Below are positions 8,511 through 38,650 of a stretch of 64,000 nt of DNA, piece by piece. Origin of the DNA: Streptomyces sp. NBC_00239 (GTDB lineage Bacteria; Actinomycetota; Actinomycetes; Streptomycetales; Streptomycetaceae); assembly GCF_036194065.1 (NCBI RefSeq), contig NZ_CP108095.1:2418001-2482000 (forward strand). Reading direction: 5' to 3'. Below the pieces are notes generated by a model. It was not told the origin of the DNA. It ran no database searches and worked only from the letters and a program-made list of their open reading frames with translations. The position numbers and the translations under genes are program-made. Numbering within the stretch: position 1 is the first letter of the stretch; the number at the start of each line of letters is the position of its first letter.

Positions 8511-8673
8511 GAACAACCTCTCGGAACGATGGGAACGGCTTCCGACCCCGGCCTGGTGCTGGACCGGAGCCGACGACCACCGACCGGGAATGGCCGGCGG
8601 CGCGGGCAGGGACCGGGGAGCTGCACAGCGCCCACAACGGCTGCTGTCTTCCCTCCGTCGGCCATCACCTCTT

Positions 8674-8703
8674 AGGTCATCGCGTGACCTCGCGGAGCGT
8701 TAC
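8674..8703 (-). promoter_or_regulatory. hrdB ECF-type promoter with overlapping inverted repeat
   Basis: On the minus strand GTAAC (8703-8699) is followed after 16 bp by CGATGA (8682-8677). This two-box pattern is the kind used by ECF sigma factors; transcription of hrdB in Streptomyces is known to depend on the ECF sigma ShbA. A perfect inverted repeat AGGTCA-N5-TGACCT (8674-8690) covers the CGATGA box and could be an operator. The assignment rests on pattern, spacing and position only. Confidence 0.5.
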
Positions 8704-8803
8704 GCCCAATCTTCGTGGCCCGAGTCACACGATGGTCGGAGAAACGCCCCACTCGGCGGTACCGCGGCACCGAGCGGGCCCGCCACGTGCCCCGCTCACG
8801 CAT

Positions 8804-8836
8804 GTGTCGCCGGACCCTCGAGAGGTCCGGCGACAC
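8804..8836 (-). terminator. Terminator of the FadR-type regulator gene
   Basis: Perfect 13-bp stem GTGTCGCCGGACC (8804-8816) / GGTCCGGCGACAC (8824-8836) with a 7-nt loop, about 60 bp past the stop codon. Confidence 0.8.
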
Positions 8837-8896
8837 CCGGTCCGCACGCGCCGCGCAGCCGCGCGGCGCACGCCGTGGCCGTGCCCGCCGCGGCCG

Positions 8897-9784
8897 TCAG
8901 TGCTCGCGCGGCGCCGGGACGACCCGCTCCACCTCCGGATGAACCGTCAGCAGCTGACGCATGGCGTTCTCGGCTCCCTGGGCGTCGGCGGCGGCGAGGG
9001 CCTCGACGATGCGGCCGTGATGGGCCACGGAGGCCTCGCTGGGGCGGTCGCAGGCGGTGATGGGGCTGCCGGACACCTGGAGGGCGGCCGAGACGATGCC
9101 GGAGAGGTGTTCCAGCATGCGGTTTCCGGCGACCTGGATGAGCAGGGAGTGGAATTCGTTGTCGGCGCGGGCGAAGGTGATCGCGTCGCCCTGGGCGAGC
9201 GCGTGGCCCATGATCTCCACCATGTCGGACAGCCGCTGCTGGATGTCCGGGCGGCCGTGTCCGGCGGCGAGGCGGGCGGCCAGCGGCTCGATGGTCCAGC
9301 GCAGTTCGTTGAGCTCGCGCCGCTGGTCGTCGCGCTGCGGCCCGAAGGCCCGCCACTCGATGATGTCGGGGTCGAGGAGGTTCCAGTCGGCGACCGGGCG
9401 GACCCGGGTGCCGACGTTCGGACGGGCGCTGACGAGGCCCTTGGCCTCCAGGACGCGCAGCGACTCGCGGACGACGGTGCGGGAGACCTCGAAGCGCTGG
9501 CCGATCTCCTCGGGGACGAGCGGGCGGTCCGCGCCGAGGTCACCGGAGACGATCATCTGACCGAGCTGCTGGACGAGTTGGCCGTGCAGGCCACGGCCGC
9601 GGCTGCCCGCCGCACGACGGCCCACCCGGCTCAGATCGACGTCGGCGCCGTCCCAGTGGGGCGGTCCGACGCGGTCGGTGCCGGGGGCATCCGCGTAGGG
9701 GTAGCGGTCGAGTTCGCCCGGGCCGGCGAGGCCGGAGTCGGCATGGCGGGCGGCGGTCATCATGGTGTGCGCAAGGGTACTCAC
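8897..9784 (-). CDS. FadR-subfamily GntR transcriptional regulator
   Basis: A 295-residue repressor-type regulator. After a 60-70 residue N-terminal extension comes a GntR winged helix (GQMIVSGDLGADRPLVPEE, RFEVSRTVVRESLRVLEAKGLV). It is followed by an all-helical FCD ligand domain whose Asp/His metal set is visible (DNEFHSLL, HHGRIVEAL). FCD proteins typically sense a carboxylate. Start chosen at GTG 9784 (STLAHTMMTAARH) with AAAGGA close in front; the frame is open to 9868. Target genes unknown; the 170-bp upstream region is a candidate autoregulatory site. Confidence 0.85.
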   Translation of the reverse strand: MSTLAHTMMTAARHADSGLAGPGELDRYPYADAPGTDRVGPPHWDGADVDLSRVGRRAAGSRGRGLHGQLVQQLGQMIVSGDLGADRPLVPEEIGQRFEVSRTVVRESLRVLEAKGLVSARPNVGTRVRPVADWNLLDPDIIEWRAFGPQRDDQRRELNELRWTIEPLAARLAAGHGRPDIQQRLSDMVEIMGHALAQGDAITFARADNEFHSLLIQVAGNRMLEHLSGIVSAALQVSGSPITACDRPSEASVAHHGRIVEALAAADAQGAENAMRQLLTVHPEVERVVPAPREH

Positions 9785-9954
9785 GAATCCTTTGTCGGCC
9801 GCGGTTCGACGGCCCTTGAGGTCTTTGGTGAAAAGCACACGAAAGGGTGATCGGTGCCACCTGCGCAATTGACGACTTATCGTAAAGAACCGGGCGCGTT
9901 CCGGGGAGTTGTGGTCGCCAACGGGGAATCCGGCCAGTCTTCAACCCTGAACGA

Positions 9955-11835
9955 TCACCAACGGACGCGGCTGCGAAGGCCCGTGAACCCATACGCGCAC
10001 AACAGGACCGTGAGCGACAACGCCAGCGCCGTTCCCACGGGTTGGGCCAGCATCCGGATGGCGCCGAGCACCAGGCGGTCCGCCTCGTGCGGCCAGTGCG
10101 CCCACGCCAGGCTCCGCAGCCGGGCCGCCACTCCCGAGGTCTCGTAGGCCGACGGCCCGGCAAAGGCCCTGCGTACGAGGGGAACCATCAGCACGGGCAC
10201 GGCGAGGACGGCGGCCAGTCCGGCGGCGGCGGAGCGGAAGACGCCGGAGGCGAGGACGCCCGCCCACGCGCACCCGACCAGCAGGCCGGCCCAACTCGCC
10301 GCCGGGGACAGCCACTCCCGGGGGACCCGGACCAGGTCGGTGTCGAACACCAGCCGCAGTGCGGCCGCGTCGGCGAGGACCGCGAGGGTCCCGATCAGCA
10401 GGGCCAGGACGGCCGAGAGCACCAGCTTGGCGGTGAGCAGCCCGAGCCGGCGGGGCACCGTCCCGCGGTCGGCGGCGAGCGCGGGGTAGCGGTACTCCTC
10501 GCCGAAGGCGAGCGCGCCGAGCAGGCCCGCCCCGAGGACCGCGGGCGGCAGCGGCAGGTACGCCGGCCAGGCCGCAGCCAGCCGCGGCTGCGGCAGGCCC
10601 CCGGAGCGCGCCGTGAACAGGGCGAGCAGCACGGAGAGCGCCACGGATACGGCCGTGACCACGGCCACGGTCCCGGTCCCCGAGGCCCGCCGCAGTTCGT
10701 AGCGGAAGGGCCGGAGCGGGCCGCCGACCCTGCGCACCGTCGAGGCGGGCCGGACCGGACCGGCCCCGGTGCGCGGGGCGCCGGATCCGGGCCGGTCCGC
10801 GGCACGTCCGTCGCCGCCGGGCCCGGGCGCCGGCGGTTCCCCCGGCACGGCGTGCCCCGCCGGGTCCGGCGCGTGGCCCCGCGCCGCGGTCTGCGCCGCC
10901 TCCGCGGCCGGGCCACCCGCGCCGCCGTCAGGGCCGGCGCCGGGGCGCGGTACGGGCAGGGGGCCCGCGTCGCCCGTCTCGTCGGCGAGCTGGTGGACGA
11001 GGACACCGTTCAGGAAGGCCGTCTCGCCGACCTCCGCGCAGCTGCTGCCGTAAACGGACAGTCGGTTGCCGCCCTCCTCGACGACCTCGACGGACCGCTG
11101 CGCGGCCCGCGCCTCCCGGCCGAGCAGCGCGGCGAGTCGCGGGGCGTGCGGGGTCCGGACCGCGACCCGGGGGCGCAGCCGGGTCCGGGCGAACTCCGTC
11201 GCCTCCTGGTCGGCGACGAGCCGCCCGCCGTCGATGACGACGACGCGGTCGGCGCTGCGGGCGGCCTCCTTCGCGTCGGCCGTGGTGAACAGGACGGCGC
11301 CGCCGAGTTCGGCGTGGCCGCGCAGCAGGCCGTGCAGCCAGCTCTGCTCGCGGGGGGCGAGGCCGGCGGTGGGCTCGTCGAGCAGCAGCGTGCACGGGTC
11401 CGCGAGCAGCGCCGCGGCCAGCCCCAGCCGCCGGTCCATGCCCGCGGACAGCGAGCCGAGCCGCTGGTCGCGCAGTCCGGCCAGGCCGACCACGTCCAGC
11501 ATCTCGTCGGCCCGGGAGCCGGGGACGCCCACCGCGGCGCACAGCATCCGCAGCTGGCTGCGGACGGTCCGGGACGGATGCCCGGGCACGTCGCCCAGCA
11601 GGACCCCCACCTCGCGGGAGGGGTGGGCGATCCGGTGCAGGGGGCGGCCGCGGAAGTATGTGACGCCGCGGCCCGCATCCAGTTCGAGCATCAGCCGGAG
11701 CGCGGTGGTCTTGCCCGCACCCGGATCACCGAGCAGGGCGGTCACCCTCCCGGGCCGGGCCTCGAAGGTGAGGTCGTCCACGGCGGGCGGGAGGTCTCTG
11801 CGGGGGGCACTGGTCAGTCCGATGGCCTGGAGCAT
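9955..11835 (-). CDS. ABC transporter, ATPase and permease fused in one chain
   Basis: A 626-residue protein. Residues 1 to about 230 form an ABC ATPase: Walker A GDPGAGKTT near residue 36, a degenerate signature SLSAGMDRR, Walker B TLLLDEPT. Residues about 290-370 are a Pro/Gly/Ala-rich linker. Residues about 375-626 contain around six hydrophobic segments, an ABC-2-like membrane domain that includes AFGEEYRYPALAADRG, the GEE...L pattern seen in ABC-2 exporters. This suggests a half-transporter with both functions in one chain. The substrate cannot be inferred. The gene stands alone between a FadR-type regulator and a NUDIX gene on the same strand. Confidence 0.75.
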   Translation of the reverse strand: MLQAIGLTSAPRRDLPPAVDDLTFEARPGRVTALLGDPGAGKTTALRLMLELDAGRGVTYFRGRPLHRIAHPSREVGVLLGDVPGHPSRTVRSQLRMLCAAVGVPGSRADEMLDVVGLAGLRDQRLGSLSAGMDRRLGLAAALLADPCTLLLDEPTAGLAPREQSWLHGLLRGHAELGGAVLFTTADAKEAARSADRVVVIDGGRLVADQEATEFARTRLRPRVAVRTPHAPRLAALLGREARAAQRSVEVVEEGGNRLSVYGSSCAEVGETAFLNGVLVHQLADETGDAGPLPVPRPGAGPDGGAGGPAAEAAQTAARGHAPDPAGHAVPGEPPAPGPGGDGRAADRPGSGAPRTGAGPVRPASTVRRVGGPLRPFRYELRRASGTGTVAVVTAVSVALSVLLALFTARSGGLPQPRLAAAWPAYLPLPPAVLGAGLLGALAFGEEYRYPALAADRGTVPRRLGLLTAKLVLSAVLALLIGTLAVLADAAALRLVFDTDLVRVPREWLSPAASWAGLLVGCAWAGVLASGVFRSAAAGLAAVLAVPVLMVPLVRRAFAGPSAYETSGVAARLRSLAWAHWPHEADRLVLGAIRMLAQPVGTALALSLTVLLCAYGFTGLRSRVRW

Positions 11836-32188: not shown

Positions 32189-34042
32189 TCACGGCCGGTG
32201 CAGCGGGTTGGGGACGGTGCCGTCGACGACGGCGTGCGGGCGCTGGGGGCGGTCCCGGTATCCGTCGCTGTACAGCCGGTTCCGGTTGAGGCACAGCCGG
32301 CCGATCCGGGGGGCGAGGAGGTCGAACAGCTCGAAGCGCTCCTTCAGCTCCGGGAAGCGCTCCTGATAGCGCACGATCTCGTCGCGGGCCAGCGACCAGA
32401 AGGTGCTCTCGGGGACGCCGACGCGGTCCTCGCAGATCGCGGAGAGGTAGCGGAAGACGCCGACGAACAGGCCGGAGTGGATGAACTGGGGAAGGAAGCT
32501 CGCGGGCTCCGTGAGGAGGACGTCCCGCACCTCCTCGGGCATGGAGGCGCGCTCGGGCAGCGGCTCCGCGCTGACGTTGACGTCGTCGACGAAGTCCTTC
32601 ACGGCCAGCCGGACGGGGACGTCGTGCGCGTCGAAGACGACGATGGCGTTCTCGCCGTGCGGGGAGAAGACGGTCCCGTAGCGGTAGAGGAAGTGGAGCA
32701 GCGGCGGGAGCAGCGCGGTGAAGAGGCGCTGCAGCCAGACGGTGGGGGTGAGGCCCGAGCGGGCGATCAGCTCCTCGGTGAAGGCCCGGCCGCGGGGGTC
32801 GGTGTGCAGCAGCGAGGCGAGGGTGCGGGCCCGCTCGCCGGGAGCGAGGCGGCCGGTCAGCGGCTCCCGCCAGATCGCGCCGAGGAGCTCCTTGTACTGG
32901 TACGGGACCTCGGGGAGCTCCTCGTATACGGGGTGGCCGACGGTCACCGAGGCGACCTCGCCGAGCAGGATCACCCCGCATTCGTCGCGGAGGAACGGGT
33001 CGGCGTCGCGCAGCGAGTGCACCCAGGCGGTGACGGCGGGAGCGGCGCGGGCCAGCCGGGTGGGCAGCCCGCGCCAGACGAGGGTGTTGAAGACGGACAG
33101 CGGCAGCTTGACGCTGTGGCGTTCCGGCCGGGAGACGTTGAGGAAGGTCCGGATGGACTGCTGCGGCAGCCGGACGTCGAGGTCGGCGGGCAGCGGTACG
33201 AGGGCGCCGGAGGCCAGGGAGGAGGCGAAGAGGGGGAGGACGATCTCGTCCCACTGCCAGGGGTGCACGGGGAGGTAGAGGTAGCCGCGGGGGTCGAGGC
33301 CGCGCTCGCGCAGCGCCTGGTCGAAACCGGCCCGGGTGACGGGGTCCAGCTCGCGGGCGTAGAGCCGGCCGGGGTCCTCCAGGCCGGCGACCCCGCGGTA
33401 GCTCGCGAGGGAGGTGTGCGCGGCGAGCCAGGGGAGCCGGCGGGGGGTGCGGGCCTCGGGTGACCACGTGGCGGTGTCCGTGCCGGAGAATCCGAGCCGC
33501 CCCTTGTTGAGGACGAGCCAGGGGTGTCCGGTCTGGTGGCCTTCGAGCGCGGCGTAGTCGAGGTCGGCGAGTACGTCCGCGGTGAGGGCGTGGTGGTCGA
33601 GGCGGGCGTCGGCGCTGAGGGTCGCTCCGAGTTCGCGGATCAGGTGGCCGAGGGTGGCGCCGTCGAGCCCGAGGAGGCGGCGGGCCAGGACCACGAACCT
33701 GAACGGGTCCGTGAACGGAACGGGCGCCGCCGGGGGCGCCGCGTGTGCCGTCGCCGGGGTGAGCGTGAGGGTGCCGGGGTCGACGTGCCAGCTGTCGTAG
33801 GTGCGGCGGCGGGCCCGGAATCCGAGGACGAATCCGTCGTCGAGGGCCAGCGTCCAGGCATCGGTGCCGGAGGGGTCGGCGCGGGGCCGGAGGATGTCCT
33901 CGTACGCGAACTCGGCGATCATCTTGGCCAGCAGGCGCCGACCGGCGGATTCCCAGGTGGCGGCGTTGAGTTCGGGCGGCGTGTGGGGGGCGGGCGGCTC
34001 GGGCGGCGGGGTGGAGTCGGGGCGGGCCGGGAAATTCTGCAC
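32189..34042 (-). CDS. IucA/IucC-family siderophore synthetase (second of two)
   Basis: A 617-residue NRPS-independent siderophore synthetase. Such enzymes adenylate a carboxylate (citrate or its derivative) and join it to an amine or hydroxamate. Family segments: GHPWLVLNKGRLGF, LPVHPWQWDEIV, QQSIRTFLNVS, SVKLPLSVFNTLVWRGLP and the C-terminal FSPHGENAIVVFD and AVKDFVDDVN. The length and HGEN motif fit the IucC/RhbF/AlcC side of the family, though type assignment needs a tree. The GTG at 34042 has GAGGAG upstream. It is the last biosynthetic gene of the four-gene operon starting at 38435. Confidence 0.85.
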   Translation of the reverse strand: MQNFPARPDSTPPPEPPAPHTPPELNAATWESAGRRLLAKMIAEFAYEDILRPRADPSGTDAWTLALDDGFVLGFRARRRTYDSWHVDPGTLTLTPATAHAAPPAAPVPFTDPFRFVVLARRLLGLDGATLGHLIRELGATLSADARLDHHALTADVLADLDYAALEGHQTGHPWLVLNKGRLGFSGTDTATWSPEARTPRRLPWLAAHTSLASYRGVAGLEDPGRLYARELDPVTRAGFDQALRERGLDPRGYLYLPVHPWQWDEIVLPLFASSLASGALVPLPADLDVRLPQQSIRTFLNVSRPERHSVKLPLSVFNTLVWRGLPTRLARAAPAVTAWVHSLRDADPFLRDECGVILLGEVASVTVGHPVYEELPEVPYQYKELLGAIWREPLTGRLAPGERARTLASLLHTDPRGRAFTEELIARSGLTPTVWLQRLFTALLPPLLHFLYRYGTVFSPHGENAIVVFDAHDVPVRLAVKDFVDDVNVSAEPLPERASMPEEVRDVLLTEPASFLPQFIHSGLFVGVFRYLSAICEDRVGVPESTFWSLARDEIVRYQERFPELKERFELFDLLAPRIGRLCLNRNRLYSDGYRDRPQRPHAVVDGTVPNPLHRP

Positions 34043-34103
34043 GGGACTCCTCGGGTGGGAACTCGGCGGCGGAGAGCGGCGTTTTGCAGGTGTCGGGGGT
34101 TGT

Positions 34104-34859
34104 TCAGAGCAGGCTGCGCAGGGCCCGCTCACGGAACATCAGGGCGGCGCGCTTGCCGGGGAGGTCGATCTCCGCGGCGAAGCGGAATCCAGAGCTGAGG
34201 AAGGCTGAGACGGAGGGGGTGTTGCGGATGTCCGGTTCGGCGACGACGCGCGTGCAGCGGGGACGGTTGTCGAGCACGAGGTCGGCCACGGCACGGAGCA
34301 GCAGCGTTCCGAGACCGCGTCCGCGGTCCGTGACGTCTCCGATCAGCAGGTGGATACCCGTGTCGTGGGGGCGCGCCGGGTAGTGCCGGGAGACCGGGTC
34401 GAGGTCGGCCCGGTAGATCTCCCAGTAGCTCATCGGTGTGCCGTCGAGTACCCCGAGGCAGGGGATGCTCCGGCCGTCGCCGTCGAGCTGGGCCCGCAGG
34501 TGCGCGGCGGTCACGGATGCGGGTCCCGCGAGTTCCCAGAAGGCGGTCACCGCCGGGTCGTTCATCCAGCGGGCGAGAAGCTCCAGGTCGCGCTCGACGC
34601 GCACGGGCACGAGCTGGAAGGCGCCCGCGGTGGTGTGGGCCGGCCGCCAGGTGGCCGGGGAGTCCAGCAGGTCGGCCTCCGCGAGGAACGGCAGGCTCTC
34701 GATCGTGTCGGGGCGCGGTGCGGGCGGGACGGGTTCCGCGGCGAGCAGGGCGAGCAGCTCCCCCGGGATCCTCAGCTCAAGGGTGTCGTCGCACGACGAG
34801 CCGGCGCGGCGGACCGCGCGTGCGGTGTGCGGATCGGGGCCCGCGTCGGTGGGTGTCAT
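34104..34859 (-). CDS. GNAT-family acyltransferase of the siderophore operon (IucB/RhbD-like)
   Basis: A 251-residue protein whose C-terminal two thirds form a GNAT domain (RVERDLELLARWMNDPAVTAFWEL; YWEIYRADLDPVSRHYP; GIHLLIGDVTDRGRGLGTLLLRAVADLVL). It is of the subfamily that acylates hydroxylamines or amines in aerobactin and rhizobactin pathways. The RGRGLG stretch is the acetyl-CoA loop. It lies 19 bp after the IucA/IucC gene and 61 bp before the second synthetase. The acceptor amine is presumably diaminobutyrate-derived, because that is what the aminotransferase would supply. Confidence 0.85.
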   Translation of the reverse strand: MTPTDAGPDPHTARAVRRAGSSCDDTLELRIPGELLALLAAEPVPPAPRPDTIESLPFLAEADLLDSPATWRPAHTTAGAFQLVPVRVERDLELLARWMNDPAVTAFWELAGPASVTAAHLRAQLDGDGRSIPCLGVLDGTPMSYWEIYRADLDPVSRHYPARPHDTGIHLLIGDVTDRGRGLGTLLLRAVADLVLDNRPRCTRVVAEPDIRNTPSVSAFLSSGFRFAAEIDLPGKRAALMFRERALRSLL

Positions 34860-34878
34860 GGCGGCGGCTCTTCTCGGA

Positions 34879-36786
34879 TCAGTCGTGGAGGGGGTTGGTG
34901 AGGGTGGCGTAGACGGACTGGGTGTCGACGGGTCCGACGAGCTCGTCCAGGCCGTGGAGCCGGGTGAGGAGGTTGGCCTTGCAGCGCAGGGTCGGGGATT
35001 CGAGCAGCAGGGCCGGGAGGGGGCCGAGGCCTGAGTTCTTGCCGAGGAAGCGGCGGAAGGCGGCGAGCAGGAGGCGTTCGTCCGCGAGGTGCTGGGAGCC
35101 GAAGGCGCCGATCAGTCCGAGGACGTTGTTGATGCCGAGGTAGTAGGCGAAGCGTTCGTCGGTGACGGCGTCGGGGACGAAGGTGTCGCTGGCGGAGCCG
35201 ATGCCGGGCAGGCGGCGGTCGAGTTCGGCGCGGTGGGACGCGCGGAAGTAGTAGCCCTGGTTGTCGCGGTAGCGGCCGCCCGTGGGCCAGCCCGCCGGGT
35301 CGAGCAGGACGAGGGTGTTCTGCTGGTGCGCTTCGAGGGCGATGCCGGCCAGGGCGTCGAGGGCGAGTACGGGCAGGACGACCTGGTCGAGGTAGCGCAG
35401 GAACCACTCGGTGGCCACGGCGGAGGTGGGGCGGCCGGTGCTCGTGGCGAGCCGGTCGACGGTGTCGGCGAGCCGGGAGGTCACTGTGTCGCGTCCGGGC
35501 CACGGGCGCGGTGCGGTGAGGGCGGCGATGCAGACGGCGTCGTCCGCGGGGCCGAAGGGGTTGTGCCGGAGCAGGGCGTCGAGGCCGGGCACGGGCTCGC
35601 CGTCGGGGGTGTCGACGGCGACCCAGGCGGGGTCGCGGACGATGTCGAAGCCGGGGTGGGCGGCCTGCCACTGCTCGGCGAGGCCGGAGCGCAGCAGCCG
35701 GTGCACCTCGACGCCGCGGTGGAGTTCCTTGCGGAGGTTCTCCCGGCGGGAGTTGGTGATGGGGACGCCGAGGGAGAGCTTGAGCATCGCGGGGGCGCCG
35801 GGGCGGTGCACGGTGCGGACGGAGGAGGTGGGGTGCCAGGGCTCCCCGTGGGGGCCGAGGTCGTGGAGGAGTCCGGCGTCGCGCAGGGCGGCGACCGGCG
35901 GGCGGTGCAGCAGGTCGCGGGCCTGCCAGGGGTGCAGGGGAAGGGGGGCGGTGTCCTCGGGGAGGTCGAGTCCGGGGGCGAGGCGGGCGAGGAGCCGGGC
36001 CGCGGGGACGGCACGGCCCCCTTCGGTCCAGGCCGAATCGGTGGCGAGGACGGACTGGTGGACGGCCATCCAGTGCAGGGGGAAGGAGCCGTGGAGTTCG
36101 GGTGAGTACAGGCGGGCCTCGGCGTCGGAGAGTCCTTCGCGGCTCTTCGGCGTGGGGTGCAGGGGGTGGCCGAGAAGGAGGGACTGTTCAGCGGTGAGGA
36201 AGGGATCCGAGCCGGCCGGGGCGGTGGGGTGGGCGCGCCGGTGGCGGATGAACACGGCGGTGCGGCGTACCGAGTCGGCGACCCTGCCGACCAGGTCGGC
36301 GCCGCCGCGGGCGCCGCCTTCGCGGACGAGCAGCCCGGCGAGGGTCACGGCGTCCAGGACGGGGGCCTCGGCCGGGGCGCACTCCAGCCGGGGCGGGGCG
36401 AAGCGGTGCCAGCCGGTGGCGGACCAGTAGCGGACGGGGGTGAGCAGGGCGGTGCCGGAGGCGGTGAGCGGGATGCGCAGGACGCCGCCGGCGGGCTCGG
36501 GCAGGTCGTTCTCGCGCACCCAGCAGCGGAGCAGGTTCTCGACGGCGGCGGCTTCGGCGGCGAGCGCCGGATCGCGGTGGTCGAGGAGGTCGGGCTGGCC
36601 CGCGAGACCGGGGAGGCTGCGCGTCCCGGCCGGGTGGGCGACGGGGTCCGGCGCGGGCGGGCGGTGGCGGGTGACGCCGTCCTTCTGCCGGGGCACGGTC
36701 GCCGCCGGCGCCGCGTCGGGGTGGGCCTGCGGGGCGTGGGGGTGGCCTTCGGCCGGGGGCGGTTCGGGTGCGGGGGTCGCGTTCAC
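34879..36786 (-). CDS. IucA/IucC-family siderophore synthetase (first of two)
   Basis: A 635-residue NIS synthetase. Motifs: LLGHPLHPTPKSREGLSD, PLPLHPWQARDLL, TSSVRTVHRPG, MLKLSLGVPITNSRREN, and C-terminal ALEAHQQNTLVLLD and GRYRDNQGYYFR. These match the RhbC/IucA side of the family. The first about 70 residues are Pro/Ala-rich. The GTG at 36786 follows AAGGAAG. It would make the first amide bond to citrate or another carboxylate. Position between the aminotransferase and the acyltransferase genes mirrors rhbC. Confidence 0.86.
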   Translation of the reverse strand: MNATPAPEPPPAEGHPHAPQAHPDAAPAATVPRQKDGVTRHRPPAPDPVAHPAGTRSLPGLAGQPDLLDHRDPALAAEAAAVENLLRCWVRENDLPEPAGGVLRIPLTASGTALLTPVRYWSATGWHRFAPPRLECAPAEAPVLDAVTLAGLLVREGGARGGADLVGRVADSVRRTAVFIRHRRAHPTAPAGSDPFLTAEQSLLLGHPLHPTPKSREGLSDAEARLYSPELHGSFPLHWMAVHQSVLATDSAWTEGGRAVPAARLLARLAPGLDLPEDTAPLPLHPWQARDLLHRPPVAALRDAGLLHDLGPHGEPWHPTSSVRTVHRPGAPAMLKLSLGVPITNSRRENLRKELHRGVEVHRLLRSGLAEQWQAAHPGFDIVRDPAWVAVDTPDGEPVPGLDALLRHNPFGPADDAVCIAALTAPRPWPGRDTVTSRLADTVDRLATSTGRPTSAVATEWFLRYLDQVVLPVLALDALAGIALEAHQQNTLVLLDPAGWPTGGRYRDNQGYYFRASHRAELDRRLPGIGSASDTFVPDAVTDERFAYYLGINNVLGLIGAFGSQHLADERLLLAAFRRFLGKNSGLGPLPALLLESPTLRCKANLLTRLHGLDELVGPVDTQSVYATLTNPLHD

Positions 36787-36827
36787 GGGGCTTCCTTGGA
36801 GAGGTGTCCGGTTCGGTGCGCGGCGGG

Positions 36828-38435
36828 TCACGTGTGGTGGCGGGCTCGTTCCGCGGCGGCGATGGCGTCGGCCAGCCGGTCGAGCACGGCTGCCGCCTGT
36901 TCGTCGGTGAGCGTCAACGGGGGCAGCAGCCGGACGACGCTGGAGTGGCGGCCGCCGAGCTCGACGATGAGTCCGCGGCGCAGGCACTCCTGCCGGACCG
37001 CGGCGGCGAGTGCGGGATCGGCGGGGGCGGGTCCGCCGGAGCCCGGTCCGCCAGCGGTGCCGACCACCCGGGCCGGGTCGTCCGTAGCGTGTGCGGCGTG
37101 CTGGGCGTCGCCCGGGTGGGCGGTGCCGGTCGGGTGCTGCGGGCCGGGGGCGGTGGCCGGGGCTGCGGAGCCGCGGCGCTGCGCCGGGGTGCGGTGGCCT
37201 GCCGTGCCGCCGGGCCCGGACGTGTCCGCGCCGACGGGGGGTGGGCGGTGGTCGTCCGCCGGGGGGCCCAGGCGGCGGGGGGCTTCCGGGTCGACGATTT
37301 CCAGGCCGATCATCAGGCCGCGGCCGCGGACGTCGCCGATGCAGGGGTGGGCGGTGGCCAGTCCGCGCAGGGCGGTGAGCATGCGGTCGCCGAGTGCGGC
37401 GGCGCGCTCGGCGAGCCGGTTCTCGCGCACGTAGGCCAGGGTGGCGGTGCCGGCGGCCATGGCGAGCTGGTTGCCGCGGAAGGTGCCGGCGTGGGCTCCG
37501 GGCTGCCAGGCGTCGAGGTCCTCGTGGTAGACGACGACCGCGAGCGGGAGGCTGCCGCCGATGGCCTTAGACAGCACCATCACGTCGGGGACCACGCCGG
37601 CGTGGTCGACGCCCCAGAAGGCGCCGGTGCGGCCGACGCCGGTCTGGACCTCGTCGGCGATGAGCGGGATGCCGCGCTCACGGGTGAGCGTGCGCATGCG
37701 GCGCATCCAGGCGTCCGGGGCGGGCAGTACGCCGCCCTCGCCCTGGACGGGTTCGAGGATCATGCCGGCCGGCGCGGCGACACCGCCCTTGGGGTCGTCG
37801 AGGAGGCTCTCGGTCCAGCGGGCGGCGAGTTCGGCGGCGGCCGGACCGCCCGTTCCGAAGGGGCAGCGGTAGTCCTGGGGGTAGGGCAGCCGTGTGACCC
37901 GGACGTCCTGGGCGCCGCCGGAGGCGTCGAGGGCGCCGGCCGTCATGCCGTGGTAGGCGCCGGTGAAGGCCATCAGTCCGGAGCGGCCGGTGGCGGTGCG
38001 GACCAGCTTGAGGGCGGCCTCGACCGCGTCGGTCCCGGCCGGCCCGCAGAACTGCACCCGGCCGTGCGCGGCGAGCGGGGCCGGGAGGTTGGCGAACAGC
38101 TCGGTGGTGAAGGCGTCTTTGACGGGGGTGGCCAGGTCCAGGACGTGCAGGGGCGCTCCGGAGTCGAGGACCTTGCGGATGGCCTCCAGTACCACGGGGT
38201 GGTTGTGTCCGAGGGCCAGCGTGCCGGCACCGGAGAGGCAGTCGAGGTAGCGGCGGCCGTCGGCGCCCTCGATGGTCAGCCCGCGGGCGCGCACCGGCAC
38301 GATAGGCAGCGAGCGTGCGTAGGTCCGGGCCGCGGACTCCCGTAGGGACTGGCGGCGCAGGATGGCCTCGGGCCCGCCGGCCCCGGCCACCGCGTCCACG
38401 CGTGCTGCTGCGGCAGCCTGTTCGGTCAAGGCCAC
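36828..38435 (-). CDS. Diaminobutyrate-2-oxoglutarate aminotransferase (RhbA-like)
   Basis: A 535-residue PLP class III aminotransferase that makes L-2,4-diaminobutyrate from aspartate semialdehyde and glutamate. It shows CLSGAGTLALGHNHP, FCGPAGTDAVEAALKL, LIADEVQTGVGRTG and the PLP lysine in VLSKAIGG. About 87 residues rich in Gly/Pro/His/Ala (roughly 384-470) are inserted before the conserved tail ADPALAAAVRQECLRRGLIVELGG; relatives are near 450 residues. Start taken at GTG 38435 with GGGAGGA upstream. It is first in the siderophore operon. No IdeR/DmdR-type iron box was recognised in the 215 bp before it; an AGGAC-N3-GTCCT repeat lies at 38473-38485. Confidence 0.85.
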   Translation of the reverse strand: MALTEQAAAAARVDAVAGAGGPEAILRRQSLRESAARTYARSLPIVPVRARGLTIEGADGRRYLDCLSGAGTLALGHNHPVVLEAIRKVLDSGAPLHVLDLATPVKDAFTTELFANLPAPLAAHGRVQFCGPAGTDAVEAALKLVRTATGRSGLMAFTGAYHGMTAGALDASGGAQDVRVTRLPYPQDYRCPFGTGGPAAAELAARWTESLLDDPKGGVAAPAGMILEPVQGEGGVLPAPDAWMRRMRTLTRERGIPLIADEVQTGVGRTGAFWGVDHAGVVPDVMVLSKAIGGSLPLAVVVYHEDLDAWQPGAHAGTFRGNQLAMAAGTATLAYVRENRLAERAAALGDRMLTALRGLATAHPCIGDVRGRGLMIGLEIVDPEAPRRLGPPADDHRPPPVGADTSGPGGTAGHRTPAQRRGSAAPATAPGPQHPTGTAHPGDAQHAAHATDDPARVVGTAGGPGSGGPAPADPALAAAVRQECLRRGLIVELGGRHSSVVRLLPPLTLTDEQAAAVLDRLADAIAAAERARHHT

Positions 38436-38650
38436 GGCTCTCGGTCCTCCCGCATGGATCGCTCTTCGAACAAGGACGCTGTCCTCGCATTCCCCCGTAC
38501 GTACCAACGACGGTGGCGGCGGCGGATCACGGGTGGGTCCGAAGATCCTTGCGGTCGGGGAACCGCGGCCCCGCTCCGCACCGTCACCAACGGCAGCGGC
38601 ATAGTGGGGGGTTGCACTCCACGCCTCGAAGCAGCAGGGGGATACACGAC

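What the first reader, a model, noticed from the sequence alone, without database searches (positions are those of the whole stretch)
32189..38435. NIS-siderophore operon with the A-C-D-F set of rhizobactin but no decarboxylase or hydroxylase
Seen: four same-strand genes with gaps of 19-61 bp encode a diaminobutyrate aminotransferase, an IucA/IucC synthetase, a GNAT acyltransferase and a second IucA/IucC synthetase. Known: rhizobactin-type pathways also need a diaminobutyrate decarboxylase (RhbB) and a diaminopropane N-hydroxylase (RhbE). Neither gene is in the operon or anywhere in the 64 kb. Inference: either the desferrioxamine enzymes DesA/DesB act in trans, or the product is a citrate-diaminobutyrate carboxylate siderophore with N-acyl rather than N-hydroxy-N-acyl groups. 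The product may be undescribed.
Basis: partly seen in the sequence, partly recalled or inferred. Interest (0 to 1): 0.78.

Follow-up and report, generated by a model that had tools for sequence, protein, structure and literature searches.

The report
Split schizokinen-type siderophore pathway in Streptomyces
The operon holds four of the six genes of a known type of iron-chelator pathway, and the two genes that seemed missing sit together far away on the same chromosome, so an apparently incomplete and possibly new pathway is most likely a familiar one cut in two.

Summary
In detail: A-C-D-F (diaminobutyrate aminotransferase, IucA-type synthetase, GNAT, IucC-type synthetase), with no B or E in the 64 kb. 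The inference does not. The same genome carries a separate B-E pair, an RhbB-like decarboxylase and a diamine-type N-hydroxylase overlapping by 4 bases, about 3.5 Mb away, distinct from desA/desB. In trees this B and E group with those of unsplit actinobacterial rhb-type operons, not with DesA/DesB. Of 179 Streptomyces genomes 165 have both D and an E closer to this one than to DesB; two genomes without D have also lost B. A published assay found that a Streptomyces DesB does not hydroxylate 1,3-diaminopropane. The operon itself is in print (csbABCD; SCO5799-5801; "similar to rhizobactin", product unknown), and schizokinen has been reported by LC-MS in three Streptomyces strains, tentatively in two. 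New here: the split and its near-universality. Unexpected: F is absent from the locus in 22 of 80 genomes examined, all keeping E; 20 have DesD as their only F-family synthetase, while in F-less loci A, C and D stay under purifying selection. The exact product (acetyl or succinyl) is unproven, and no iron box was found at either locus.

The parts
36828..38435 (-). A: diaminobutyrate--2-oxoglutarate aminotransferase (RhbA/CsbA type); longest ORF starts at 38507; carries a Pro/Ala/Gly-rich insertion after about residue 411 of that ORF that RhbA of S. meliloti lacks
   Evidence: NCBIfam PRK06938 and TIGR00709; 58% identical to S. meliloti RhbA; insertion by reading
34879..36786 (-). C: IucA/RhbC-type NIS synthetase (start uncertain; longest ORF to 36987)
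   Evidence: PF04183 + PF06276; nearest solved structure IucA 5jm7; in the RhbC clade
34104..34859 (-). D: Acetyltransf_8 GNAT (RhbD/IucB/CsbC type); about 75 N-terminal residues without a match
   Evidence: PF13523 169 bits; RhbD 40% identical; nearest solved MbtK
32189..34042 (-). F: IucC/RhbF-type (type C) NIS synthetase (start uncertain; longest ORF to 34132)
   Evidence: PF04183 + PF06276; nearest solved DesD, AlcC, DfoC, IucC; with RhbF, apart from DesD, in the tree
38559..38611 (.). Block of about 50 bases between A and the divergent S1-protease-like gene (ATG 38651), conserved in 52 of 66 upstream regions; may hold an ECF-type promoter (GGAACC 38559, CGTC 38582) towards the protease-like gene
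   Evidence: the ECF reading is a recalled consensus, not tested

Best explanation
This is one half of a complete, nearly genus-wide, schizokinen-type (rhbABCDEF-type) NIS pathway that in Streptomyces is split over two loci. Proposed route: A makes 2,4-diaminobutyrate; B (in trans, L019:~8625-10148, G000:C1 ~5976624-5978147) decarboxylates it to 1,3-diaminopropane; E (in trans, L019:10145-11557) N-hydroxylates one amine; D acylates the hydroxylamine; C couples the first arm to citrate and F the second, giving schizokinen or, if D uses succinyl-CoA, a succinyl analogue. Shown here: gene families, presence and conservation of the B-E pair, its kinship with operon-linked B and E, and co-retention or co-decay with the A-C-D-F locus. 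Inferred: every substrate and the product.
For: Own genome: PF00282 and PF13434 genes side by side, overlapping by 4 bases, at C1 ~5.976-5.980 Mb, apart from desA/B/D at C1 ~5.260-5.264 Mb. E of this type in 167 of 179 genomes: 160 with E-value <= 1e-190 (five of them, at 1e-195 to 1e-207, not looked at singly), 5 as fragments of at least 71% identity and 2 divergent but in the BE clade; 3 more have a related E in a second rhb-type operon. D and E: both 165, D only 3, E only 5, neither 6 (Fisher p 8.6e-7). B beside E in 30 of 35 loci examined: all 30 best loci; of the other 5, which come from the D-less genomes, 3 end at a contig edge and 2 lack B. E and B trees: the pair falls with B/E of unsplit actinobacterial rhb-type operons (B: 100/100 for 13 BE + 13 operon rows), apart from DesB (100/99) and DesA (100/99). 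L204 holds B-C-D-E-F together, with C, D, E, F 51-60% identical to the Streptomyces proteins. Co-decay: G014 and G051 lack D and have lost B beside E; G079 and G501 lack F and the pair. DesB of S. sviceus did not hydroxylate 1,3-diaminopropane (PMC8009421, passages). Schizokinen reported by LC-MS in three Streptomyces strains and assigned to gene clusters (PMC11865988, PMC13136089, passages).
Against: No biochemistry. No iron box (<=3 mismatches) at either locus although desA has a perfect one (wider scans). CsbC, the D of another Streptomyces, prefers succinyl-CoA on the amines tested, and no product was found in that strain (PMC9600172). G081 has full A-C-D-F but neither the pair nor a DesB-level match; G008 has A-C-D up to a contig end and no pair. 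F is missing from the locus in 22 of 80 genomes that all keep E, so the six-gene scheme does not fit every species. Co-loss rests on few independent events: four of the 'neither' genomes have closely related DesB, and D or E status of G028 and G050 is blurred by assembly. One operon-linked E (L231) falls beside DesB with weak support (84/77), and the S. meliloti and haloarchaeal RhbB fall on the DesA side of the midpoint root.
Confidence: 0.85

Rival explanations
1. DesA and DesB of the desferrioxamine pathway supply the diamine arm in trans.
For: desA, desB and desD are in the genome; the D-containing genomes G008, G079 and G501, which lack the B-E pair, have a DesB.
Against: A separate pair exists in this genome and nearly the whole genus. 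S. sviceus DesB does not hydroxylate 1,3-diaminopropane. G081 has A-C-D-F but only a 32% identical hydroxylase match.
Confidence: 0.06
2. The product is a citrate-diaminobutyrate carboxylate siderophore without hydroxamates.
For: Achromobactin-type pathways use diaminobutyrate without decarboxylation (recalled).
Against: C and F belong with RhbC and RhbF; D is of the IucB/MbtK/RhbD kind; B and E are co-retained.
Confidence: 0.03
3. The two-locus pathway is right, but D adds succinyl, so the product is a bis(N-succinyl-N-hydroxy-aminopropyl) citrate amide rather than schizokinen. (This competes with the acetyl form inside the best explanation, so the odds overlap.)
For: CsbC preferred succinyl-CoA in vitro; acetylation was seen for some antibiotics but generally with much lower efficiency (PMC9600172, passages).
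Against: Those substrates were antibiotics and some primary metabolites, not the native hydroxylamine; schizokinen (acetyl) was reported from other Streptomyces.
Confidence: 0.25
4. The B-E pair belongs to another, unlinked pathway and its conservation with the operon only reflects that both are core genes.
For: Both are near-universal, and losses are few and phylogenetically clumped.
Against: Linked B-C-(D)-E-F relatives; six Streptomyces genomes (G043, G114, G121, G446, G454, G478) whose nearest E lies in a second rhb-type operon instead; B lost in the two testable genomes where D is lost.
Confidence: 0.08

Closest known systems
csbABCD of Streptomyces sp. YIM 121038 (PMC9600172) = SCO5799-5801 type 'putative siderophore' cluster
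   Same: Same four genes in the same order beside dinG, lexA and nrdR (passages); that SCO5799-5801 is the same locus is recalled synteny, not tested
   Different: The paper notes that iucD is missing; the passages I read do not mention an unlinked decarboxylase-hydroxylase pair; no product found there
rhbABCDEF of Sinorhizobium meliloti (rhizobactin 1021; schizokinen is its direct precursor, PMC3534580, passage)
   Same: All six enzyme families have a counterpart
   Different: One operon there, two loci here; the fatty-acyl step that turns schizokinen into rhizobactin 1021 was not looked for here
Haloarchaeal hexacistronic operon (Haloferax volcanii, PMC7407949; relative L106)
   Same: Same six gene families; a quadruple iuc deletion abolished the H. 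volcanii siderophore, proposed to be schizokinen (passages)
   Different: Linked there; iron-induced there, no iron box found here
Desferrioxamine desABCD
   Same: Decarboxylase, hydroxylase, acyltransferase and type C synthetase of the same superfamilies
   Different: DesA, DesB and DesD form separate clades; cadaverine-based, without aminotransferase or citrate (recalled)

Membership tests
schizokinen/rhizobactin-type (rhb) NIS pathway | Diaminobutyrate aminotransferase A, IucA-type C, GNAT D, IucC-type F | tested here: met
   (this genome; F is absent from the locus in many other species)
schizokinen/rhizobactin-type (rhb) NIS pathway | RhbB-type decarboxylase B and diamine N-hydroxylase E in the genome | tested here: met
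   L019 pair and trees; the NCBIfam RhbB hit is below its cut-off (271.7 of 900 bits); substrates not tested
schizokinen/rhizobactin-type (rhb) NIS pathway | All genes in one operon | tested here: not met
   B-E about 3.5 Mb from A-C-D-F; kinship is claimed for the enzymes, not for the layout
schizokinen/rhizobactin-type (rhb) NIS pathway | Iron-repressed expression | tested here: inconclusive
   No iron box in the window or L019, perfect box at desA; expression not measurable here
schizokinen/rhizobactin-type (rhb) NIS pathway | Product is a citrate bis-hydroxamate of 1,3-diaminopropane | not testable with these tools
   Only literature hints
desferrioxamine (des) pathway | B, E, F are DesA, DesB, DesD | tested here: not met
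   separate clades
aerobactin (iuc) pathway | Amino-acid (lysine) N6-hydroxylase IucD feeding IucB | tested here: not met
   E's three best solved relatives are hydroxylases of desferrioxamine-type and putrescine pathways; MbtG and ornithine hydroxylases score far lower; an aminotransferase A is present instead

The most novel reading that the evidence does not exclude
In the many Streptomyces that lack F but keep A, C, D and E, DesD takes over the second condensation. D's succinyl preference would make N-hydroxy-N-succinyl-1,3-diaminopropane, the three-carbon homologue of DesD's own substrate, so the csb and des pathways would form one network that yields mixed citrate or ferrioxamine-like siderophores not yet described. 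In line with it, all 22 F-less genomes examined have some type C synthetase: DesD in 20, another RhbF-like one (and no DesD-level match) in G018 and G044.
Probability: 0.15. Interest if true: 0.75.

Novelty: new variant of a known kind. Interest (0 to 1): 0.5.

Why it matters
The cluster is among the most conserved natural-product loci of Streptomyces, yet papers call it cryptic or untied to a product (PMC3848822, PMC9600172). Methods that look only around a cluster would not see a two-gene partner 3.5 Mb away. Naming the partner turns an orphan cluster into a testable six-step pathway, tells which genes to delete or co-express, and warns that 'missing' steps of conserved clusters may lie in small unlinked operons. 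The repeated absence of the type C synthetase with retention of the rest raises a new, directly testable question about cross-talk with desferrioxamine synthesis.

Tried and rejected
Iron (DmdR) and Zur boxes: no convincing iron box upstream of A (66 loci) or B (5 loci); the positive control at desA was found. Zur-box scores upstream of A were slightly better than simple shuffles (14 of 66 with 5 or fewer mismatches against about 3 expected); I did not follow this, since none has fewer than 4 mismatches of 15. The first A-upstream scan covered only 4 sequences because of a naming slip in my script and was redone. The conserved block upstream of A was not found upstream of B with fewer than 3 mismatches of 13. 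Plasmid hits of the aminotransferase (40 of 454 records listed) served only to obtain reference operons. The third NIS pair C1:1382973/1384894 (L021) was considered as a partner and left: its members stand apart from C, F and DesD in the tree, and no PF00282 or PF13434 match lies near it. Papers looked into without use for the argument: PMC12161575, PMC13061897, PMC13293324; PMC6011815 concerns the des genes; PMC3610822 lists expression of SCO5799 and SCO5801 only. A search for guessed S. coelicolor gene numbers of the pair (SCO2016-2019) found no Streptomyces paper. No structure prediction was run.
Full report
Observation. The window is a stretch of a 9.3 Mb genome in 5 contigs (G000:C1:2418001-2482000). 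Its nearest named relatives at this locus are Streptomyces (all 80 kept loci). On the minus strand at 32189-38435 lie an aminotransferase, an IucA/IucC protein, a GNAT and a second IucA/IucC protein. Against the S. meliloti rhb locus (L104) and a haloarchaeal six-gene operon (L106) they match A, C, D and F: A 58 and 58%, C 40 and 38%, D 40 and 41%, F 40 and 45% identity (loci; L104 bears no annotation and was read). C's closest solved relative is IucA; F's are DesD, AlcC, DfoC and IucC. In a tree of 53 synthetases C falls with RhbC (100/98 branch) and F with the RhbF set (89/82); DesD is a separate clade (100/100). No B or E is in the window.

The missing genes. A search of the same genome finds five PF00282 decarboxylases and ten PF13434 matches, three of them strong. 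One decarboxylase-hydroxylase pair is desA-desB (L020). A second pair stands alone at C1 ~5.976-5.980 Mb (L019:7905-11557): a decarboxylase whose best NCBIfam hit is L-2,4-diaminobutyrate decarboxylase RhbB (271.7 bits; the cut-off is 900, and DesA scores 426.7, so this hit alone says little about substrate) and a hydroxylase overlapping it by 4 bases. The decarboxylase ORF has a long N-terminal part without homology; the HK motif of the PLP lysine is kept (role of the lysine recalled). The order is pepN-like, B, E, 5'-nucleotidase-like (opposite strand), SIMPL-like, pyruvate kinase, in this genome and in L215, L216 and L233; L211 is similar without the two middle genes (neighbour names are my reading of the translations).

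Conservation. Of 179 Streptomyces genomes, 160 have an E match with E-value <= 1e-190 (the list of matches is cut at 1e-211, so five of them, G037, G138, G145, G156 and G178, at 1e-195 to 1e-207, were not looked at singly). A closer look at the 19 others adds five with orthologue pieces of at least 71% identity (G010, G012, G041, G070, G099) and two divergent orthologues (G113, G135; in the BE clade). Three (G043, G114, G121) have E in a second rhb-type operon. Nine have none (G008, G079, G081, G027, G050, G092, G130, G132, G142). D is strong (E <= 1e-66) in 168 of the 179 and absent or above 1e-20 in 11. Cross-table: both 165, D only 3 (G008, G079, G081), E only 5 (G014, G028, G032, G051, G139), neither 6; Fisher p = 8.6e-7, or 3.8e-6 without the three genomes under 90% complete. 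These p-values ignore relatedness. Two cells are blurred by assembly: G028 and G050 lack D in the search but have F beside the helicase. A fourth genome with D but no E, G501, turned up in the class-wide searches.

Co-decay. In G014 and G051 E stands at the usual place but no B is found beside it. The synthetases of G014 that were classed are not csb-type; G051 has A (at least its end) and C, then the helicase directly, so D and F are gone. In G032 and G139 no classed synthetase is csb-type (some lower-scoring ones were not classed), and B cannot be judged because the contigs end. G079 and G501, which lack the pair, also lack F between D and the helicase. Against this, G081 keeps all of A-C-D-F without a pair, and G008 keeps A-C-D up to the contig end.

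Kinship. B is adjacent to E in 30 of 35 loci: in all 30 best loci; of the five from D-less genomes three end at a contig edge and two (G014, G051) lack B. The E tree (41 rows) puts the pair in one clade (100/99) with the operon-linked E of G418 (L199) as sister and those of second Streptomyces operons next; DesB is its own clade (100/99). One linked E, of G342's second operon (L231), falls beside DesB with weak support (84/77). The B tree (34 rows) joins the pair with all 13 operon-linked B (100/100), apart from DesA (100/99); the S. meliloti and haloarchaeal RhbB fall on the DesA side of the midpoint root, so the tree shows kinship within actinobacteria, not substrate. Unsplit operons: L200-L202 (A-B-C-E-F), L204 (B-C-D-E-F), L231 (F-B-C-D-E). 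In G043, G446 and G454 the window-type locus is cut down to C-D while a second operon holds B, C, E and F; G478 (L224) has C-D-F there; G114 (L221) has A-C-D and F up to the contig end. That the two loci complement each other in such genomes is an inference.

DesA/DesB in trans. S. sviceus DesB hydroxylated cadaverine, putrescine, spermidine and, with reservations, lysine, but not 1,3-diaminopropane (PMC8009421, passages on diaminopropane only). E's best solved matches are 6xbb ('Monooxigenase'; S. sviceus DesB by recall), a putrescine N-hydroxylase and the hydroxylase of desferrioxamine synthesis 5o8p, well ahead of amino-acid hydroxylases.

The F puzzle. Among the 80 named loci F is present in 69, absent with the helicase in view in 8, and untestable in 3. 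A search with an F piece in 30 genomes (22 F-less, G079, G501 and 6 F-containing controls) found F in each control; 20 of the 22, and G079 and G501, show only one match, at 36-42% identity, which is DesD beside desB in every one of those 22 loci. G018 and G044 instead show one RhbF-like match at 50 and 54% and no DesD-level match. F status changes about 7 times on a D-plus-helicase tree of 77 rows (3 of 80 dropped for short pieces). In F-less loci median dN/dS is 0.18 (A, 6 loci), 0.33 (C, 8) and 0.28 (D, 8), against 0.15, 0.35 and 0.25 in 8 F-containing loci; the pieces of C hold a stop in 2 of 8 F-less and 2 of 8 F-containing loci, which I did not follow up. So the remaining genes look still selected. 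What replaces F is unknown; DesD in trans is my boldest reading. B was seen beside E for the F-less G173 (L117) but was not checked for the other 21.

Regulation. A perfect iron box precedes desA; none with up to 3 mismatches is in the window or L019, and 66 A-upstream regions score no better than shuffles for it. A conserved block upstream of A may belong to the divergent protease-like gene.

Literature. [quoted passage not shown] PMC9600172 (outline and passages) names the cluster csbABCD, notes that iucD is absent, found no product, could not disrupt csbC, and shows CsbC to be a succinyltransferase on several amines. PMC6950998 (passages): a 'putative rhizobactin-like' cluster is the most highly expressed one in S. 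lividans; I did not verify that it is this locus. PMC7324645 and PMC3224560 (passages) call SCO5799-5801 a putative siderophore cluster. PMC11865988 and PMC13136089 (passages) report schizokinen by LC-MS in one and two Streptomyces strains (tentative or putative in the latter), assigned to gene clusters whose identity with csb I could not check. PMC3534580 (passages) links RhbB, E, D and F to schizokinen formation. PMC7407949 (passages) shows that the homologous operon is needed for a haloarchaeal siderophore, proposed to be schizokinen. Ten searches turned up no description of the B-E pair as partner of this cluster in the listings and passages I saw; most subscription papers are not covered.

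Verdict. The finding is real and its interpretation is replaced: a known pathway type in a split layout, near-universal in the Streptomyces genomes sampled. Confidence is high for the split, moderate for schizokinen as product, low for how F-less species finish the molecule.

Noticed in passing
window 38559-38611: About 50 bases between A and the divergent S1-protease-like gene are conserved in 52 of 66 Streptomyces upstream regions and could hold an ECF-sigma promoter for the protease-like gene.
   Followed up: partly
upstream of A, 66 loci: Zur-box-like scores are slightly better than in shuffles (14 of 66 with 5 or fewer mismatches of 15, about 3 expected), none better than 4 mismatches.
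   Followed up: no
G000:C1:1382973-1385571 (L021:7714-12211): A third set of two NIS synthetases, distinct from RhbC/F and DesD, with a gene carrying a FhuF C-terminal motif nearby; product unknown.
   Followed up: partly
G000:C3:143122-144162 (L022:7096-8448): A strong PF13434 N-hydroxylase gene on a 304 kb contig that has no IucA/IucC match.
   Followed up: no
window 36828-38435, around residue 411 of the longest ORF: The aminotransferase carries a Pro/Ala/Gly-rich insertion absent from RhbA of S. meliloti.
   Followed up: no
L217 and L218 (G012:C1 4.36 and 8.94 Mb): In one genome the E gene lies in two parts about 4.6 Mb apart, each with its own neighbours, as after a large rearrangement or a misassembly.
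   Followed up: partly
L220, L222, L223 against L208, L205, L206: Three genomes with a second rhb-type operon in which no D was found keep only C-D at the usual locus, as if the two loci complement each other.
   Followed up: partly
L105, L107: Pantoea and Robbsia plasmids carry aminotransferase and decarboxylase (in Robbsia also hydroxylase) genes without NIS synthetases among the annotated genes of the stretch shown.
   Followed up: no
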